42,355 nt of DNA from a virus: the IMG/VR virus record IMGVR_UViG_3300032431_000018, positions 1-42,355 of that record; one strand, written 5' to 3'. The notes below the pieces were generated by a model. It was not told the DNA's origin, did not search any database, and saw nothing but the letters and a program-made list of their open reading frames with translations. Of the stretch, positions 2,516 to 41,717 are shown one piece after another (position 1 is the first letter of the stretch; the number at the start of each line of letters is the position of its first letter). The translations under genes were made by a program, and so were the position numbers.

Positions 2516-3112
2516 ATGCTTTGTATTTCAAACTGCGCACCCGCTTTACCGTTTTCAGTTGTTGGTTCTAATTGCGGTGACATTGACACTCGTGAGGGTG
2601 GTATTAGCTACTTAATTGCTGCAAAATGTAGCGTAGCGTTTAACCCCGCTGTGAACCCGATTACGGATTGGGAAAGTTGGGAAGCATTAGTAAACAATAG
2701 AAGCATCATGCTTTCACCGCCATTGAGTTCAGGTGATAAGCCTGAAACCGAAACAGCCTCTGAAAGGGTTTCAACATGTAACCCTGAAACGGTAACGAGC
2801 GAAACACATTTAATAAACTTTCAAAGTAAGTTTGCTGATTTAGTGAACCTCACAGACTACGATTTTTGGGGAACTATTAAAGAAAATTTACAGGCTTATA
2901 ATATTGGGTGGCTTGGTTGTGATGGCTTGGTTTATGTTAACGGCAACATCCCAGGCTATCGTATGTTCGGCAATGTATCGGAAGTGATTCCTGAAAACAA
3001 CGAAGCGTTAAAATATTTCATGGGTCAATTAAAGTTTAAATATAAAGGTTTAATTAAGCCTACAAGAATTGAGAACTTTATGGCTGCCTTTGCGAATCAA
3101 CCTATAAGCTGA
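2516..3112 (+). CDS. Candidate major tail (tube) protein
   Basis: 198 residues with a cysteine-rich start (MLCISNCAPALPF). A middle region with an ITDWESWEALVNN segment and a compact, beta-rich C-terminal half fit tail-tube or other major virion proteins of Bacteroidota siphoviruses. An A-rich leader of 46 bp precedes it, the longest gap in this stretch, as expected for a strongly expressed gene. It ends 3 bp before the portal gene. The position before the portal rather than after the connectors is unusual, so another virion role is possible. Confidence 0.5.
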   Translation: MLCISNCAPALPFSVVGSNCGDIDTREGGISYLIAAKCSVAFNPAVNPITDWESWEALVNNRSIMLSPPLSSGDKPETETASERVSTCNPETVTSETHLINFQSKFADLVNLTDYDFWGTIKENLQAYNIGWLGCDGLVYVNGNIPGYRMFGNVSEVIPENNEALKYFMGQLKFKYKGLIKPTRIENFMAAFANQPIS

Positions 3113-3115
3113 TAA

Positions 3116-4876
3116 ATGTCAATAACGGATTTACTGGTATTTTGGAAAGCAAACGAACCGCAGGTTAAATCCAAGTGGGTAGATTGCTTTGACCAAATGG
3201 CGGTGCATTCAAGAAAGTATTCACCAAAGAAACTAATTGAGATTACCCGCCCCAGTGAACCGAAAGACATTTTAAATTATAGACTAGCTACGGATGAACC
3301 GATAACACACGCCTCGATAAACGAGGCTATAATTCGTGCTAGTAAAATAATTCACAACTCGAACTATTCAGTAGATTTATCTGAAGAGTTGAGTAATTAT
3401 ATTAAAGATAATTTTATTGAAGAGTTCGATTCAAAAGGTACTCCCGATTTAGTATCTTTTGAAGATGTACTGTTTAATAGATGCTTTAGGTACTCGTGCG
3501 AAACGGGTAACGGTGTAATAGCGTGGATTCCAATGAACGCCTTTGATGTTAATGCAGCACCTATTAATCAAGCTGCAACCGAACAAGTTAGGCTAAGTTA
3601 TTCAATTATAGAGCCTAAGAACATTATCGCTTTACAAAGCAATTACTTCATATTTAGATTAAAGAATAAATATAAAGTTGTAAGAGATGAAATGGTAAGT
3701 TATGAAGACCAGTACATGTATATTGATAAAAACAGGTATGTTTTATTGCTGCCTTTTTTTGATAAAACTTCAATATCATATACTGAAAGTCCTTGGTACA
3801 ATATCGCATCTGTAAACGAAGAAGGTATCTATGTTGAAGAAGATGCAGCCGACACTTTGCCCATTGTTATTACGAAAGGTTATGCAACTTATGACATACA
3901 TCAAAACCTATATTACGAAAGCTACTTCAGTGGATTTGTGCCATTGGCAAACGAAGCCAAGCTGGCTTATTCAGATGACAAAGCGGTTAGGTTAATTAAC
4001 AACTTTCCAGTACGTGAAGAAAAAGAAGAGGAATGTGATGCGTGTCATGGCACGGGCAAAATAAATGATGTAACGTGTGGTTCTTGTGGAGGTACAGGCT
4101 ATAAAAGCGCAAAGTCGCCATATTCTACATATAAAAAGAGAGAACCCGCTTTAGGTCAAGATTCTGAATGGGCAAAAGTACCTGCGCTAACATACATAGA
4201 GCCTCCAGTTCAAGCTCTAAAACATTCATTTGAAGTGTGGCAATTGTTTTTGGACAAAGCCGAGCAAAAGGTAAATATTAAATTTATAGACGATGCACAA
4301 AGTGGCGTTGCGAAAGACATAGATAGGGAAGGGCTTATTGATTTAAGACTTTCAATATCTAATAACTTTTTTGATAACATCATGTACAAATCTTTTTGGA
4401 TTTGTGAAATTTTACTAAAGCCAAATTCGGCTGACAGACAAGAGCCTATAATAAAGAAGCCCACAGCAGCCGATTTAAACTATAAATCTACTGCTCAATT
4501 AATAACAGACTTACAACAATATTCAAACGGGAGTGTGCCTCATTTTGTAGGTTCAATGAAAATTTTAGAAACGATAGGGAAATTATTTCCAGACGATTTA
4601 CAAAAGCAAAAGTTCACTAAAGTATTAATGTTTGTAGACCCTTTATTTGGCTATTCGACACAAGAAACTAGTATGATTGTGCAGAATAGCACAACTAAAA
4701 AAGCTGTAATTACACACTTGTATGCTGAACATGAATTGATAAAATTAAGTATGGAAGATGAAGACCTTTTCCAAAAAGATATTAAAACTATTGCGGAATT
4801 GTTGATTAAAAAGTTAGACGTTTATTTAACACCCGATTCATTAGAAATTACTAACTTATTCCCAATTGGCTCGTGA
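3116..4876 (+). CDS. Portal protein with embedded DnaJ-like zinc finger
   Basis: 586 residues, the usual portal length, directly upstream of and overlapping a MuF-like head morphogenesis gene, as in many siphoviruses. Portals form the dodecameric ring at the capsid vertex through which DNA is packaged and ejected. The sequence is mixed alpha/beta with a helical C-terminal third. Residues 307-328 hold two CxxCxGxG units (C307/C310 and C321/C324), the DnaJ-type zinc-binding repeat, inserted just before the region that would form the stem. I infer portal identity mainly from size, context and composition. Confidence 0.72.
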   Translation: MSITDLLVFWKANEPQVKSKWVDCFDQMAVHSRKYSPKKLIEITRPSEPKDILNYRLATDEPITHASINEAIIRASKIIHNSNYSVDLSEELSNYIKDNFIEEFDSKGTPDLVSFEDVLFNRCFRYSCETGNGVIAWIPMNAFDVNAAPINQAATEQVRLSYSIIEPKNIIALQSNYFIFRLKNKYKVVRDEMVSYEDQYMYIDKNRYVLLLPFFDKTSISYTESPWYNIASVNEEGIYVEEDAADTLPIVITKGYATYDIHQNLYYESYFSGFVPLANEAKLAYSDDKAVRLINNFPVREEKEEECDACHGTGKINDVTCGSCGGTGYKSAKSPYSTYKKREPALGQDSEWAKVPALTYIEPPVQALKHSFEVWQLFLDKAEQKVNIKFIDDAQSGVAKDIDREGLIDLRLSISNNFFDNIMYKSFWICEILLKPNSADRQEPIIKKPTAADLNYKSTAQLITDLQQYSNGSVPHFVGSMKILETIGKLFPDDLQKQKFTKVLMFVDPLFGYSTQETSMIVQNSTTKKAVITHLYAEHELIKLSMEDEDLFQKDIKTIAELLIKKLDVYLTPDSLEITNLFPIGS

Positions 4877-16091: not shown

Positions 16092-16555
16092 TTGATTTAA
16101 ACATTGTTGCTAATAATTTCGCTGAAATAACAAAGCGACTTTTCCCGATGTGGAGCGATATTGTGTTAAATAATGCAGGCGCAGAAATTAGGCGTAGAAT
16201 TTTTAATGAAGGTGGGGCAACGGACGGCAAAATAGGCTCTTATAAGTCTAAAACCAAACTCATAAGAGAGCAACTAGGATTACAGACCGCCTATGTAGAT
16301 TTAGAATCAACAGGCACGTTAAGAAGAAGTATTCAAGTAGGCATCAGTGAAAATGACAAAGTGTTAGGTATTGCAGAAATCAATTATGAAAACAACTTTT
16401 CTACCGATAAAAACGCAAACGTTCAAGAAAAGAATTTTAAAAAAGAGATTTTTACAATCAGTGAAAAAGAAATTGAAATCGCTTTTAAAGGAGCAGACGA
16501 ATGGCTCGACAAACAATTAGATATTGAATTAGAAAAAATGTTCAAGAATGCTTGA
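16088..16555 (+). CDS. HK97 gp10-like neck / tail completion protein
   Basis: 155 residues from the ATG at 16088 (MIDLNIVANN), which forms an ATGA junction with the preceding stop; the frame is open 18 bp further upstream (MGLPIT) but the junction start is more economical. The central segment with RRRIFNEGGATDGKIGSYKS and a later STGTLRRSIQVG resembles gp10-family neck proteins, which join head and tail. It overlaps the next gene by 8 bp. Confidence 0.65.
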   Translation: MIDLNIVANNFAEITKRLFPMWSDIVLNNAGAEIRRRIFNEGGATDGKIGSYKSKTKLIREQLGLQTAYVDLESTGTLRRSIQVGISENDKVLGIAEINYENNFSTDKNANVQEKNFKKEIFTISEKEIEIAFKGADEWLDKQLDIELEKMFKNA

Positions 16556-18635
16556 CAAAGTTCAAAGAGAGTTATTAAATTTTGTAGATAGGGGCTACTT
16601 TGGTTTAGGATTCAGCGGTGTTCGTTTGAGTGGTGGGAAGCTAATAGCATATAACGAAGATGGGAGTGTGGGCGATTTTACAGGCATTCAGGACAATAAT
16701 AGTAATTACGTTTATATAAGAGTTTTGACTGACGGTCAAGCAACTAACGAATCAATAAGCACTTGCGGGAGTAAGGTAATGCAAGCGAATTTAAGGCTAG
16801 TTGCGATTGCATGGGATACTAATATTTATCTTTTAAGTGGATTTTTAGCAAGCAGAATCGTAAATTTTAAAAAGTATAGGGTCAAAATAAACAGTACGAA
16901 TTTAGATTACGATAGCATCTGGAATGCTGAAATGATAAATACAGATGCCAAAAGGTACAATGGCATGAGTGTTGTATCGGTTGATATTTCAGTAAAGTAC
17001 AATCTTGATAATAAATTTTACGATAGCCCTTGCGCTTTGGATTTATGCGAAGATGTAAAAGTATGTAAAGACGGTTTTGTAATATTGAAAGATGAAGATG
17101 GTAATATAATTTTAGAGCAGGTTGTGCCAAGCGGTGTAACGGTAGAAAAAACAGTTAATTTACAATGCTTAGATGCAGATGCAGTGCTAAAAGATACGGC
17201 AGGGGGTGTAATTAGCGTTACCGATATACCAAGCGGTGCAACCCAAGACATCATTGCACCCGATGCCGAAGCGATATTAAAGGATACATTAGGAACTGTT
17301 ATTAGTGTTAATAATATTGTTAGTGGCGGAAGTGAAGATATTATAGCACCCGATGCCGAAGCAGTAATAAAAAACACTTTAGGGATTGTTATTAGCACAA
17401 ATAATATTCCTAGTGGAGCAAGCGAAGATATTATTATTCTCGATTCACAAGCAACTTTAAAAGATACGGCAGGTAATATTATAAGTGTTAATAATATTGT
17501 TAGTCAAGCAAGTGTTGATATTATTGCGCCCAATGGAACTATAAATTTAGTAAATACCGTTAACACGCCTATAGCTTCATTAAATGTAAGAAGTGGCGAA
17601 ATAAAGCCATCTGTTATTGCTAATGTGGCTTGGACTGATAGCGATGGCAGCGGTGAATCTACACCTTATGGCAATGCTATTAATTGCACACCTATAACGC
17701 CTTTATTCGTAGATTTTTCTGCTTCAAAAACGAACCCTGTAACCCACGAAAGTATAACTTTTACCGATTTATCAACAGGCGCAACGAATTGGCTATGGAA
17801 TTTTGGCGATGGAACAACATCAACTTTACAAAATCCTGCTAAAATTTATTTTTATGCAGGCGCATACACTGTAACCTTAGCAGCTTCTAACCCAGTGGCA
17901 GGAGGCTTTGAAACTAAGGTTGCATTTATAAATGTAACATTGCAAAGTATTGTTGCAACCAACCTACAGGCTCATTATAGGGCATTAGAAGGCGTTGCCC
18001 CCTCTAACGCAACACTTGTGCTTGGTGATGTGAGCCAATGGAATGACAGCACTGCAAACGCATTTCACGTTACGCAAGGCACTGCTGCTAACAGACCTAT
18101 TTATTCAATTAACGAAATTACAGCACCTAACGGAAGCATCTATGGTGGTGCAATATTCGATGGTATAAACGACTTTTTAGCCAATGCTTCGGCAGGCTTT
18201 GTAAGGTCTCCAAATAGCACAATGTTTTTGTTGTTTAAAATATCAGCCTTGGCAACTTCAGGAACTAGGGGCTTATTTACCACCGTGGGACTTCAGGCTG
18301 TTTTATATAATTTTGGAAATCCACAAATAAGGATGCAAAGCGGGGCAATAATTGATACAGGAATGGCTTATCCATTAAATAATTACTTTGTATTAAGGGT
18401 GCAATTTTCTAACAGCGGTAACGCTCAAATAAGAATGAATAGCCTTATAACTAGGGCTGTGGCTAATACTGGTGCAGTCTCAACAAGCGGCTTCGCTATT
18501 GGAGGCAATAACGCAGGTTCAGCACAATCTTCTATAACATTTATAGAAGGGGCAATTTATAGCGCAAACCCAACTTCAGGCGATGTGACCAATATATTAG
18601 AATATTTTAAATCAAAATTTGGGCTATGGGTATAG
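16548..18635 (+). CDS. Tail-terminator-like domain fused to repeats, a PKD domain and a LamG-like lectin domain
   Basis: 695 residues in four parts. (1) Residues 1-165 (MLDKVQRELLNFVDRGY start, SVVSVDISVKYNL end) look like a compact tail-completion domain in the position of a tail terminator. (2) Residues 209-358 are five 30-residue repeats with the core VLKDTAGGVISV and PSGA; a sixth, divergent copy precedes them at about 176-207. (3) Residues about 386-465 form a PKD-type Ig-like domain (FTDLSTGATNWLWNFGDGTT). (4) Residues about 471-695 resemble a LamG/concanavalin-like lectin domain (YGGAIFDGINDFL). Such domains bind glycans, so a virion-displayed adhesin is likely. Confidence 0.72.
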   Translation: MLDKVQRELLNFVDRGYFGLGFSGVRLSGGKLIAYNEDGSVGDFTGIQDNNSNYVYIRVLTDGQATNESISTCGSKVMQANLRLVAIAWDTNIYLLSGFLASRIVNFKKYRVKINSTNLDYDSIWNAEMINTDAKRYNGMSVVSVDISVKYNLDNKFYDSPCALDLCEDVKVCKDGFVILKDEDGNIILEQVVPSGVTVEKTVNLQCLDADAVLKDTAGGVISVTDIPSGATQDIIAPDAEAILKDTLGTVISVNNIVSGGSEDIIAPDAEAVIKNTLGIVISTNNIPSGASEDIIILDSQATLKDTAGNIISVNNIVSQASVDIIAPNGTINLVNTVNTPIASLNVRSGEIKPSVIANVAWTDSDGSGESTPYGNAINCTPITPLFVDFSASKTNPVTHESITFTDLSTGATNWLWNFGDGTTSTLQNPAKIYFYAGAYTVTLAASNPVAGGFETKVAFINVTLQSIVATNLQAHYRALEGVAPSNATLVLGDVSQWNDSTANAFHVTQGTAANRPIYSINEITAPNGSIYGGAIFDGINDFLANASAGFVRSPNSTMFLLFKISALATSGTRGLFTTVGLQAVLYNFGNPQIRMQSGAIIDTGMAYPLNNYFVLRVQFSNSGNAQIRMNSLITRAVANTGAVSTSGFAIGGNNAGSAQSSITFIEGAIYSANPTSGDVTNILEYFKSKFGLWV
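17172..17621 (+). repeat. Five 90-bp in-frame tandem repeats in the adhesin-like gene
   Basis: Each unit encodes 30 residues of the form D.(D/E)A.(L)K(D/N)T.G.(V/I)IS..(N/D)I.SG...(D)IIAP. Units start at 17172, 17262, 17352, 17442 and 17532; the last is the most divergent. The strict 90-bp period with diverged third positions points to an old expansion kept in frame. Repeats like this usually act as a stalk that extends a binding domain. Confidence 0.8.
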
Positions 18636-35300: not shown

Positions 35301-35591
35301 ATGGAAACAAATAAAAAGTCAAAGTTTAATCCTAAAGCAGGTAGACCAATTGAATCAGCCCAAATTATTAAAACTGTGAATCTAGTAACAGGACATAAGA
35401 TTGAATATATGATTGGGCAAATAGTCTTTCTAAGGATGGACAATGAGCAACAGCCTAGATTATGCACTGGCATAAGTTTACGCCCAAACAGAAGCGTAAC
35501 GTATTGTCTAGGCTTAGGTACGTCAGAAAGCTGGCACTATGGTATTGAAATTTCAGACGAAAGGGATGTGTTAAAAGCTACTGGGATTTAA
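35301..35591 (+). CDS. Conserved Bacteroidota-phage protein, unknown function
   Basis: 96 residues. IGQIVFLRMDNEQQPRLCTG and SVTYCLGLGTSESWHYGIEI are a pattern I recognise from small proteins of Bacteroidota phages that end in EIS...; the fold looks like a small beta barrel. The first 20 residues (KSKFNPKAGRPIES) are basic. Function unknown. Confidence 0.65.
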   Translation: METNKKSKFNPKAGRPIESAQIIKTVNLVTGHKIEYMIGQIVFLRMDNEQQPRLCTGISLRPNRSVTYCLGLGTSESWHYGIEISDERDVLKATGI

Positions 35592-35606
35592 AATTATTAT
35601 TAACAA

Positions 35607-35941
35607 TTTAAATAAACACAAATGAGAAAGACAGCCATGATGCATTTTAGAGATAATTTGCTTAAACAAGCTAAAGAATTAGAAAAGGATGCAGCAATTA
35701 ATCTATACTTAAAGGGTTGTTGTGATTGTTTAAAAAATGTAGCCAAAGAGATTGATACCAAAATGTTGCAAGAAGAAAAAAAGGAAATGATTGCTTTTGC
35801 TTATGCTCAAATTGAAGAAATCGACAGCGAATTAGGTGACTTAATTTATAAAAAAGTACCTAAAGAAATATATGATGAAGCTTACGGAAATATTTTTTAG
35901 TATTTTAATTTATTATTAAAACTTTAAATAAACACAAATGA
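35607..35941 (+). repeat. Duplicated 19-bp translation leader
   Basis: TTTAAATAAACACAAATGA occurs identically at 35607-35625 and 35923-35941 and covers the start codons of two successive genes. It has no Shine-Dalgarno; the A-rich leader is the probable ribosome entry signal, as in other Bacteroidota systems. Confidence 0.8.
35622..35900 (+). CDS. Small helical early protein
   Basis: 92 residues, helical and acidic, starting MRKTAMMHFRDNLLKQAKEL with a Cys cluster (KGCCDCLKN). The opening (K-T-A-M-x-x) recalls small conserved proteins of Bacteroidota phages. Its leader is the 19-bp sequence also present before the next gene. Function unknown. Confidence 0.6.
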   Translation: MRKTAMMHFRDNLLKQAKELEKDAAINLYLKGCCDCLKNVAKEIDTKMLQEEKKEMIAFAYAQIEEIDSELGDLIYKKVPKEIYDEAYGNIF

Positions 35942-36357
35942 AAGTAAAAATCAAGGTAGAAAAAGAATTTGACATTAAAATTCTAAAAGTAAAAGCAAAA
36001 GTTAGAAATTGGGCTGATAGCTATGTTGATGGAAAGCCTGACACGCATACAGGTCGAAATATGCCTTGCAGCGATGGTAAAAATTGGTCTCCTGAAATTG
36101 ATGTTGAAAAAGGTAAAATTATCAATTGGGAACAAAGTAAGACCGCAAGTATTATATATAAAGTAGGCGATGGGTGTTCATGGGAATTAATAGACGAAAA
36201 CGGGTTAGTTGTTTTATCAGCAAAAAATAGCGAAGTTCCAAAAACACTTTGCCCTAAAAAAATATGGTATGGCGATTATATAAAAATGAATATTGACGAA
36301 AACGGAATAATTGAAGATTTTATATTTAAAATTAACTATTTTCAACACGAAGATTAA
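35938..36357 (+). CDS. Conserved Bacteroidota-phage protein, unknown function
   Basis: 139 residues. KVRNWADSYVDGKPDTH, ENGLVVLSA and YGDYIKMNIDENG follow closely a pattern I know from a very common Bacteroidota phage protein family (AxVRYWEDAxVNG, YGDYIIMNIDENG). It is beta-rich, with aromatic residues that could bind a ligand. Function unknown. Confidence 0.7.
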   Translation: MKVKIKVEKEFDIKILKVKAKVRNWADSYVDGKPDTHTGRNMPCSDGKNWSPEIDVEKGKIINWEQSKTASIIYKVGDGCSWELIDENGLVVLSAKNSEVPKTLCPKKIWYGDYIKMNIDENGIIEDFIFKINYFQHED

Positions 36358-36360
36358 TAA

Positions 36361-36856
36361 CACTATTTCAAAAACTTTATGTAGTTTTACAAAATAACAA
36401 AATTGGTTTTTGCCTTTAAGCCATAATTAAAGCAGCAGGGATGTTGCATAAGGCATCGGAGTAGTGGGCGGGCTGAATACTGTAACAACTACTTTTAAAG
36501 CGTTATTAGAGGACTTTGCGAAGCGCAGCGGTGGTGCGAAAGTTACGAGCCGTAAGACAAAGATGCAAGTAGAATTATTGCAGACAGTGGGTAACGAATA
36601 ATGGAGTATCTACGCTACCATTTACACAAAAAACAATTGGTATTATATGCCTTTAGGTTTTTAAAGTGTAGCAACCAACTACCGAATTTTTGGTAGGGGG
36701 TGTGCTATCCTCAAACGCTAGTGTCTTAACTCATAAAGCAACTACAAAAAGATGGCGGTGGTGGATTTGACATATTGAAATAGTAGTAATACGCGCGACG
36801 TAAAACCATAAATTAAAATAAATCAATTTATAACGTAAAATTTAAAAAAAAATACT
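36361..36856 (+). ncRNA. 496-bp gene-free stretch with a GC-richer island, candidate long structured RNA
   Basis: No ORF of useful size exists here. The part 36411-36780 is clearly GC-richer than the genome. Pairings read on the plus strand: TGCCTT (36411-36416) with AAGGCA (36450-36455), enclosing GCAGCA-GGGA-TGTTGC (36432-36447); AGTAGT with ACTACT (36460-36493); CGTTATT (36501-36507) with AATAATG (36597-36603), enclosing TGCAA/TTGCA and TTACG/CGTAA hairpins; a long hairpin TAGCA...TGCTA (36669-36707) containing CTACCG/TGGTAG. The last 60 bp are the AT-rich ssb leader. No known RNA class recognised; a replication origin is the alternative. Confidence 0.5.
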
Positions 36857-37291
36857 ATGGTTAATAGGGCAATTTTAATTGGCAGGTTGGGAAATGATGC
36901 AACACAAAAAGACGTAATAGGGAAAACCGTAACTTCTTTTTCGTTAGCAACTTCTGAAACTTATAAAGATAAAAAGGGGGAGGTAGTTGATACTGCCACA
37001 TGGCACAACATAACTCACTGGGGGGCTTTAGATGCTTCTTTATTCAAAAAAGGAACATTGGTATGCATTGAAGGTAAAATTAATAACAGAAGCTATTTAG
37101 ACAAAGACGGCATAAAAAAATACATTAGCGAAATTATCGCCAATAAGTTAACCCTAGTTTCAGCCAATTATACGCCTTCAGAGCCATCAAATGCACCTCA
37201 AAGGCGTACAGCATCGGATAATATAAATGAAAGGCAACAGGATAGCGCAAAACAGCCACAGCATGAAGGCTATGATGACTTACCGTTCTAA
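36857..37291 (+). CDS. ssb: Single-stranded DNA-binding protein
   Basis: 144 residues. The N-terminal OB fold starts MVNRAILIGRLGNDATQ, with ATWHNITHW as the usual WH...W strand. A disordered Gln/Ser-rich linker leads to the acidic tip DDLPF, which recruits partner enzymes in bacterial SSBs. It coats single-stranded DNA during replication and recombination. It is preceded by the non-coding island and converges with the 77-residue minus gene, overlapping its end by 4 bp. Confidence 0.92.
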   Translation: MVNRAILIGRLGNDATQKDVIGKTVTSFSLATSETYKDKKGEVVDTATWHNITHWGALDASLFKKGTLVCIEGKINNRSYLDKDGIKKYISEIIANKLTLVSANYTPSEPSNAPQRRTASDNINERQQDSAKQPQHEGYDDLPF

Positions 37292-39997: not shown

Positions 39998-40432
39998 ATG
40001 ACGAAATACACACCTGAACTATTTGATGCCGTTTGTTCAGAAATTTCTTTTACCGATAAATCACTAGAATTTATTTGTAAAAAACTGGACATTCATAGGG
40101 CTTCAGTTTATAATTGGATAAATGATGATAAAATATTATTTGACAAATACACGCGCGCAAAAGAGATGCAAGCGCATCATCTTGCAGGTCAAACAATAGA
40201 AATTGCAGACGAAACTAGTGACGATTATATAACTAATAAATTTGGCGAAGAAGTAACTAACAATGAAGCTATAGCCCGTTCAAGACTTAAAATAGATGCA
40301 AGAAAGTGGCTTGCAGGTAAACTACATCAAAAGGTTTACGGTGATAAAGTAAGCACTGAATTAAGCGTTACCGAACCTTCATCCTTTGAGCTAAAAATTA
40401 CTCGAGTTGATAGCGGAAGCAAGCCTCAATAG
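39998..40432 (+). CDS. Terminase small subunit
   Basis: 144 residues. The N-terminal HTH is clear: EFICKKLDIHRASVYNWIND, which would bind the packaging start site. A central helical region (EAIARSRLKIDARKWLAGK) matches the oligomerisation part of small terminases. It is directly upstream of the large subunit gene and overlaps it by 26 bp. Confidence 0.85.
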   Translation: MTKYTPELFDAVCSEISFTDKSLEFICKKLDIHRASVYNWINDDKILFDKYTRAKEMQAHHLAGQTIEIADETSDDYITNKFGEEVTNNEAIARSRLKIDARKWLAGKLHQKVYGDKVSTELSVTEPSSFELKITRVDSGSKPQ

Positions 40433-41717
40433 CAAGCAATATGATGCTTATAATTCAACAAGTAAAGAGGTCTGTTACCTTAGCGGTGTAGGTGGTGGTA
40501 AGACATTCTTACTTGCTATACTCACTATAAAATTCGCTTCAATAAAAGGCAGTATTGGTCTTATTTCAGCCCCTACATTTGACACGTTAAGAACTGCTAC
40601 TTTCAAAGGCATTACCGAAGCATTTAATAAGTTAGGGCTTATTGATGGCGTTCATTATGTTATAGGCATTAGACCGCCTTTAGATTGGGGCGTTGAACCA
40701 TTTTCAAAGATTACAAACGTTCGTGTAGTAACTTGGCGCAACGGAAGTTATACTATCTTAGAATCGTTAGAAAATTTTAATAAGTTACGTGGCACTCAAT
40801 TTGATTACATTTTAGTTGATGAGTTCAGGGACATTAAGTTCACGGCAGTTAGAAAAGTGTTGATAGGTCGAGCTAGGGGCGATTGTTTCATTTCCAAAAA
40901 CATAAAGCACCAAATCTACTATGTGTCTACACCGCCTGACGATGTTAGGGAGCTTGTTAATTTAATAAATAGCGGTGTTGTTGATTACATCCAAGGTTCT
41001 AGTTACGATAATAGAGTAAATCTACCTGAAGGTTATATTGAATCATTGTTAGCCACTTATGACCCTTTAACGGCTAAGCGTGAAGTTTATGGGCTACCTG
41101 TTGGGGCTGTTACCGAAAGACAGTTTGCATATTCGTACGACCAAAACTATCATTATACATCATTTTCAGAAATAAAATGTGTATTAAATAAATCAGAACC
41201 TATTAAATTGGCTTTTGATTTTAACGTTAATCCAGTAACGTGCATTTTAGGGCAATCAACCCATAAAACAATTAGAATATTCAAAGCGTTTTCAGCTCCA
41301 AATTCAGACACTGCTGCATTATGCGATTTAGTAATTGCTTATTTGGGTAGCGAAAAATATACAATCTTCATAACTGGCGATGCCAATGGGTACAAGCGTG
41401 ACACTCGAAGCTCTATTAACGATTATCAAATTATTAAAGATAAGTTTGAGTTGAGAAAACCTCAATTGCTTGCTCCAAGAATGAATGCTTCGTTAAGAGA
41501 TAGCAGGGTCTTATGTAATGCTATACTAAGCCATTTAGACTTAGCAATTAATTCAGATAACAACGCATGTAGGGATTTAGATGACGATTTGATAACCGTT
41601 CAGGTTGACGATTCAGGTAAATTAGATAAGAAAAAGCATGGAGCGCATACACTCGATAATTTAAGATATTATCTTCACACGTGGCATTATGATTTTTTAA
41701 AAACAAAAACTAAATAG
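40407..41717 (+). CDS. Terminase large subunit
   Basis: 436 residues. ATPase: Walker A SGVGGGKT (26-33) and Walker B YILVDEF (134-140). RNase H-like nuclease: LAFDFNVNP (D271), ITGDANG (D325) and HTLDNLRYY (D417), the expected three acidic positions. The enzyme cuts concatemeric DNA and drives it into the head. The start is a TTG 26 bp inside the small subunit gene; no ATG lies nearby in frame. Confidence 0.92.
   Translation: MIAEASLNSKQYDAYNSTSKEVCYLSGVGGGKTFLLAILTIKFASIKGSIGLISAPTFDTLRTATFKGITEAFNKLGLIDGVHYVIGIRPPLDWGVEPFSKITNVRVVTWRNGSYTILESLENFNKLRGTQFDYILVDEFRDIKFTAVRKVLIGRARGDCFISKNIKHQIYYVSTPPDDVRELVNLINSGVVDYIQGSSYDNRVNLPEGYIESLLATYDPLTAKREVYGLPVGAVTERQFAYSYDQNYHYTSFSEIKCVLNKSEPIKLAFDFNVNPVTCILGQSTHKTIRIFKAFSAPNSDTAALCDLVIAYLGSEKYTIFITGDANGYKRDTRSSINDYQIIKDKFELRKPQLLAPRMNASLRDSRVLCNAILSHLDLAINSDNNACRDLDDDLITVQVDDSGKLDKKKHGAHTLDNLRYYLHTWHYDFLKTKTK

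What the first reader, a model, noticed from the sequence alone, without database searches (positions are those of the whole stretch)
36411..36780. A 370-nt GC-richer non-coding island before ssb, probably a large structured RNA or origin
Seen: no ORF, raised GC content against the surrounding AT-rich genome, at least seven nested or adjacent stems, several with G-U pairs on the plus strand. Large ornate phage RNAs exist as classes (for example GOLLD and ROOL); I do not recognise this as one of them. Its place just before ssb also allows a replication origin.
Basis: partly seen in the sequence, partly recalled or inferred. Interest (0 to 1): 0.82.

Follow-up and report, generated by a model that had tools for sequence, protein, structure and literature searches.

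The report
Orphan structured RNA upstream of phage ssb
Just ahead of the gene for a single-strand-DNA-binding protein, this phage (probably of Bacteroidota) carries a roughly 430-base stretch that codes for no protein, is unusually GC-rich and is predicted to fold into one closed, many-armed RNA; it matches no known RNA family, but no relatives were found to prove the structure or give its function.

Summary
Positions 36358-36856 form the longest intergenic gap in the window. The 370-nt core is 41% GC against 32.6% for the window. It has no coding signal above shuffles (12.3 bits, P = 0.28; the four same-strand neighbour genes score 31-76). Inside it are nested long-range helices and about eight hairpins, several with mean pair probability above 0.9. 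The folding unit is 36360-36787, about 428 nt, plus strand. It starts 3 nt after the upstream stop codon and ends 69 nt before the ssb start. Folding energy is moderately low (z -2.5 to -3.2), and some coding windows of this phage score lower, so energy alone is not proof. Rfam 15 has no credible match. Searches of phages, plasmids, viral contigs, Bacteroidota genomes and a single-sequence covariance model found no homologue, so covariation could not be tested. The origin idea has no support: no DnaA boxes, no iterons, and GC skew follows gene direction. Most likely this is an orphan, large structured phage RNA co-transcribed with ssb. Whether it acts in trans or as a cis leader is open. Structured RNA of either kind: about 0.65.

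The parts
36358..36856 (+). Longest intergenic gap of the window, between the stop of a plus-strand ORF (35938-36357) and ssb
   Evidence: ORF list and gap table; no coding signal
36360..36787 (+). Predicted structured RNA, one closed fold of about 428 nt
   Evidence: MFE -112.7 kcal/mol for 36358-36792, z -3.2 (0/100 shuffles), -2.5 (5/400), -2.6 (1/80)
36360..36371 (+). P1 5' arm (ACUAUUUCAA core), pairs with 36775-36787
   Evidence: Inverted repeat; 10 perfect pairs, mean pair probability 0.95; 0.5% of shuffles reach it
36775..36787 (+). P1 3' arm (UUGAAAUAGU core)
36375..36386 (+). P2 5' arm CUUUAUGUAGUU with two competing partners of equal strength: 36728-36738 (AACUCAUAAAG) or 36740-36751 (AACUACAAAAAG)
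   Evidence: duplex energies -8.0 and -8.2 kcal/mol; forcing the second gives -112.0 against -112.7 kcal/mol overall
36728..36751 (+). The two tandem alternative P2 3' arms
36404..36447 (+). Two hairpins: UGGUUU/AAGCCA, and GCAGCA-GGGA-UGUUGC with a GNRA-type loop
   Evidence: pair probability 0.73 and 0.95
36449..36456 (+). P3 5' arm UAAGGCAU, pairs with GUGUCUUA 36721-36728
   Evidence: pair probability 0.67
36458..36495 (+). Hairpin GGAGUAGU...ACUACUUU with inner GCGG/CUGU
   Evidence: pair probability 0.92-0.99; 36430-36500 alone z -3.15
36499..36513 (+). P4/P5 5' arms AGCGUU and GAGGA, pair with 36714-36719 and 36708-36712
   Evidence: pair probability 0.88 and 0.94; domain 36497-36722 z -3.07, 0/80 shuffles
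36708..36728 (+). 3' arms of P5 (UCCUC), P4 (AACGCU) and P3 (GUGUCUUA)
36517..36621 (+). Inner multiloop hairpins, including 36564-36582 and 36601-36621, whose loops GUAGA and UCUAC are complementary (possible 5-bp kissing contact)
   Evidence: the kissing contact is inference
36624..36706 (+). Two strong adjacent hairpins, 36624-36669 and 36670-36706
   Evidence: pair probability 0.84-0.99; 36601-36720 z -3.5
36788..36856 (+). AT-rich spacer (21% GC over 36786-36856), A-rich before the ssb start, outside the fold
36857..37291 (+). ssb, single-strand DNA-binding protein
   Evidence: PF00436 E = 4.8e-21, phrog_44 E = 2.9e-32
35938..36357 (+). Upstream ORF of 139 aa, no known family

Best explanation
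The stretch 36360-36787 is a large structured non-coding RNA, read from the plus strand as part of the rightward operon that ends with ssb. The RNA closes on itself through P1 (and P2). Inside, nested helices P3-P4-P5 carry about eight hairpins around two multiloops. It is more likely a stand-alone module, cut out or protected by its own fold and acting in trans during the replication phase (for example as a scaffold or decoy), than a simple translational leader, because the fold closes 69 nt before the ssb start and leaves the A-rich start region free. Shown: no coding signal, GC contrast, position, complementarity and fold against shuffles. Inferred: transcription, processing, trans action. 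Not known: partner and task.
For: Non-coding with raised GC in an AT-rich phage. End-to-end closing helix with pair probability 0.95, reached by 0.5% of shuffles. Plus-strand fold better than shuffles: 0/100, 5/400 and 1/80; minus strand weaker. Sub-domains 36430-36500 and 36497-36722 each beat all 80 shuffles. The unit fits the gap: it starts 3 nt after a stop codon and ends before the ssb start region. The ORFs assigned from 35301 to 37291 run in the same direction, so read-through transcription is plausible.
Against: No homologue, hence no covariation. Fold energy is not unique: random windows of this phage average z -0.9 (sd 1.5), and some coding windows go lower. No promoter of the Bacteroidota type (TTTG...TANNTTTG) and no intrinsic terminator of its own was seen on the plus strand, so a discrete transcript is unproven. 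The trans-versus-cis choice rests on layout alone.
Confidence: 0.45

Rival explanations
1. A structured 5' leader of ssb: the RNA fold (perhaps through the two competing P2 partners) senses SSB protein or another signal and sets ssb expression.
For: Directly upstream of ssb in the same direction; the P2 5' arm has two mutually exclusive partners of equal strength (-8.0 and -8.2 kcal/mol), as a switch would need.
Against: The fold ends 69 nt before the ssb start and does not hide it; no terminator-like hairpin on the plus strand before ssb; the fold is far larger than usual leaders.
Confidence: 0.2
2. A decayed or recently acquired piece of foreign, GC-richer DNA (for example a gene remnant) with no function.
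For: GC contrast; a 49-codon stop-free stretch rich in purines at codon position 1; no relatives found.
Against: Coding score no better than shuffles (P = 0.28); no profile match to the frames tested; no convincing DNA match in phages or plasmids; end-to-end pairing and sub-domain folds better than shuffles.
Confidence: 0.2
3. A replication origin or other DNA-level site.
For: Adjacent to ssb; inverted repeats present.
Against: No DnaA-box-like site within the gap; no tandem repeats or iterons; skew follows gene direction; initiator-like and helicase genes 7-9 kb away; pairing is spread over 428 nt with strand-specific G-U pairs.
Confidence: 0.07
4. One or more tiny proteins (45, 31 and 26 codons, nearly end to end at 36464-36770).
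For: The three small ORFs overlap by a few bases.
Against: Start codons GTG, ATG and TTG; coding scores +10.3, -4.3 and -2.1 bits, not above shuffles; no homologue of the largest in viral or genome contigs or phages.
Confidence: 0.08

Closest known systems
GOLLD and ROOL RNAs (large ornate phage and prophage RNAs; PMC12286853)
   Same: Large, many-armed, non-coding, carried by phages, function unknown.
   Different: No Rfam match. According to PMC12286853 GOLLD and ROOL often lie near tRNA islands and many GOLLD exceed 800 nt; here there is no tRNA gene and about 430 nt.
STAXI motif (Rfam RF01728 from memory; described in PMC2864571)
   Same: A structured motif often found near ssb genes.
   Different: STAXI is a pseudoknot repeated two or three times (PMC2864571); this stretch has no tandem repeat and no Rfam match to it.
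Structured leaders of single-strand-binding-protein mRNAs (e.g. phage T4 gene 32 translational operator; from memory)
   Same: Structured RNA directly upstream of a single-strand-binding-protein gene.
   Different: The T4 operator is a short pseudoknot close to the ribosome site; here about 430 nt closing 69 nt before the start codon.
Unassigned ~420-nt island in freshwater phage contigs L018 and L019
   Same: Non-coding, GC-richer, about 420 nt, near ssb, folds with z -3.3.
   Different: No significant sequence similarity (18 of 100 shuffles align as well); different helix layout; weak sub-threshold match to EGFOA RNA, which the window lacks.

Membership tests
GOLLD / ROOL / OLE | Match to the family covariance model | tested here: not met
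   No match at gathering score or at E up to 10 in the region
GOLLD / ROOL / OLE | Large, extensively paired non-coding RNA | tested here: inconclusive
   Non-coding and well folded, but without covariation
GOLLD / ROOL | Often near tRNA genes | tested here: not met
   No tRNA in the window
GOLLD / ROOL | Homo-oligomeric RNA-only cage | not testable with these tools
   Needs cryo-EM or native gels
STAXI | Tandemly repeated pseudoknot near ssb or similar genes | tested here: not met
   No tandem repeats, no Rfam match
ssb leader / autoregulatory element | Structure that controls access to the ssb start | tested here: inconclusive
   The predicted fold ends 69 nt before the ATG; regulation itself not testable here
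Replication origin | Initiator boxes or iterons, AT-rich unwinding element, skew minimum independent of genes | tested here: not met
tRNA or tmRNA | ARAGORN or Rfam match | tested here: not met
Group I or group II intron | Rfam match and a split gene | tested here: not met
   No Rfam match; it lies between a complete ORF and a complete ssb gene
Protein-coding gene or pseudogene | Reading frame with coding signal or profile match | tested here: not met

The most novel reading that the evidence does not exclude
A new class of large ornate phage RNA, about 430 nt, made with ssb at the replication stage and possibly acting as a stand-alone or multimeric RNA particle, unrelated to every Rfam family.
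Probability: 0.3. Interest if true: 0.75.

Novelty: new variant of a known kind. Interest (0 to 1): 0.5.

Why it matters
Large structured RNAs of phages are few, and their tasks are unknown. An additional class with a different size, a different neighbour (ssb rather than tRNA genes) and probably a different host group would show that such RNAs are a wider phage habit, and a link to the replication operon would give a first hint of function. As it stands this is one sequence without relatives, so it is a good candidate rather than a result.

Tried and rejected
Homologue hunting: blastn in phages and plasmids gave only one chance-like 28-nt piece. Scans of viral contigs with ssb, terminase, a 719-aa virion protein and helicase gave only distant relatives or none, and an exact DNA pattern from the core gave none. 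A degenerate terminase motif found phages with up to 44% identical terminases, but none had an ssb match or a convincing match to the region. Two genome-contig scans and 395 Bacteroidota genomes searched for the terminase or the region gave nothing beyond an AT-rich tail match. A covariance model of the core made from the one sequence found only itself in about 1.06 Mb of held loci and 40 viral records. First folds started at 36400 and gave an unremarkable z of -1.7, because they cut off the P1 arm. The 49-codon ORF looked protein-like by eye but failed the codon test. TAG recoding gives a longer frame, but the phage uses TAG as a normal stop. The resemblance to the L018 island was checked and is not significant.

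Full report
What is there. The window is a 42-kb virus record with late genes on the plus strand (terminase 39998-41717, virion genes from 1 to 19 kb), a long minus-strand block with replication genes (DnaB-like helicase, initiator-like protein, exonuclease) and a short plus-strand group of ORFs 35301-37291 that ends in ssb. The helicase is closest to Bacteroidota sequences among plasmid records (about 41% identity), so the host is probably in that phylum. Between the stop codon at 36357 and the ssb start at 36857 lies the longest intergenic gap of the window (499 nt). Its 370-nt core has 41% GC; other intergenic gaps have 18-35%, apart from one 95-nt gap.

Is it coding? By eye the stop-to-stop frame 36452-36598 looks protein-like. 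It has no ATG, a GC3 of 47% against 27% for the phage's genes, and the best codon score anywhere in the gap is within the range of shuffles (P = 0.28), while the four same-strand neighbour genes score 31-76 bits. The frames tested match nothing in Pfam or PHROGs, and the 49-aa frame has no relative in phages, viral contigs or genome contigs. TAG is a normal stop in this phage. The region is non-coding as far as sequence can tell.

Is it structured? A repeat search showed complementary ends: 36362-36371 with 36775-36784 (10 perfect pairs), and 36375-36386 with either of two tandem partners. Folding 36358-36792 as RNA gives -112.7 kcal/mol, z -3.2 (0 of 100 shuffles), -2.5 (5 of 400) and, for 36358-36790, -2.6 (1 of 80); the minus strand gives z -1.4. 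Helices P1, P4, P5 and several hairpins have mean pair probabilities of 0.88-0.99. The domains 36430-36500 and 36497-36722 beat all 80 shuffles on their own. The closing helix is matched by 0.5% of shuffles and 0.5% of equal windows of the phage. Two cautions apply. The phage's windows in general average z -0.9 with sd 1.5, and some coding windows are far lower, so energy alone does not set this region apart. And a middle part, 36509-36600, folds no better than shuffles (z +0.3).

Relatives. Covariation would decide the matter, and I could not find a single homologue. The collections note that records very near this genome may be left out. Terminase relatives up to 44% identical exist, but they have no detectable ssb or matching stretch. 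A covariance model of the core made from the one sequence found only itself. Rfam 15 has no credible match.

How it most likely works. The simplest reading is a large structured RNA transcribed with ssb. The fold starts 3 nt after the upstream stop codon and ends 69 nt before ssb, leaving a 21%-GC, A-rich start region free. That layout fits a self-contained RNA better than a translational switch, but the two equal P2 partners keep a switch possible. No promoter or terminator of its own was seen, so a discrete RNA would have to come from processing. An origin is unlikely.

Known relatives in kind. GOLLD and ROOL are the nearest kinds: large, elaborate phage RNAs of unknown task that often lie near tRNA islands (PMC12286853). 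This one fails their models and has no tRNA neighbour. STAXI is a repeated pseudoknot motif near ssb and similar genes (PMC2864571) and does not fit either. I therefore call it an orphan candidate of a known kind, not a member of any family.

Noticed in passing
L018:1010-1434 (-) and L019:1427-1850 (-): A ~420-nt GC-richer intergenic island, nearly identical in two freshwater phage contigs whose sequence on one side differs; folds with z -3.3; sub-threshold match to EGFOA RNA (E 0.03) over about 110 nt; about 1.1 kb from ssb. A second large structured RNA candidate.
   Followed up: partly
window 3046-3480 (+): The start of a large ORF (3116-4876, probably the portal) folds far better than shuffles (z -6.8), the strongest fold among the sampled windows; a long structured stretch inside a coding region.
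   Followed up: no
L015:879-997 (-) and L027:72-190 (-): Betaproteobacteria-1 RNA (RF02932) in two viral contigs that also carry an ssb gene.
   Followed up: no
window 36375-36386 with 36728-36751: One arm with two tandem, equally strong alternative partners; could be a switch or a duplicated arm.
   Followed up: partly
window 17224-17434 (+): 2.3 copies of a 90-nt repeat inside a virion-protein-like ORF (16548-18635).
   Followed up: no
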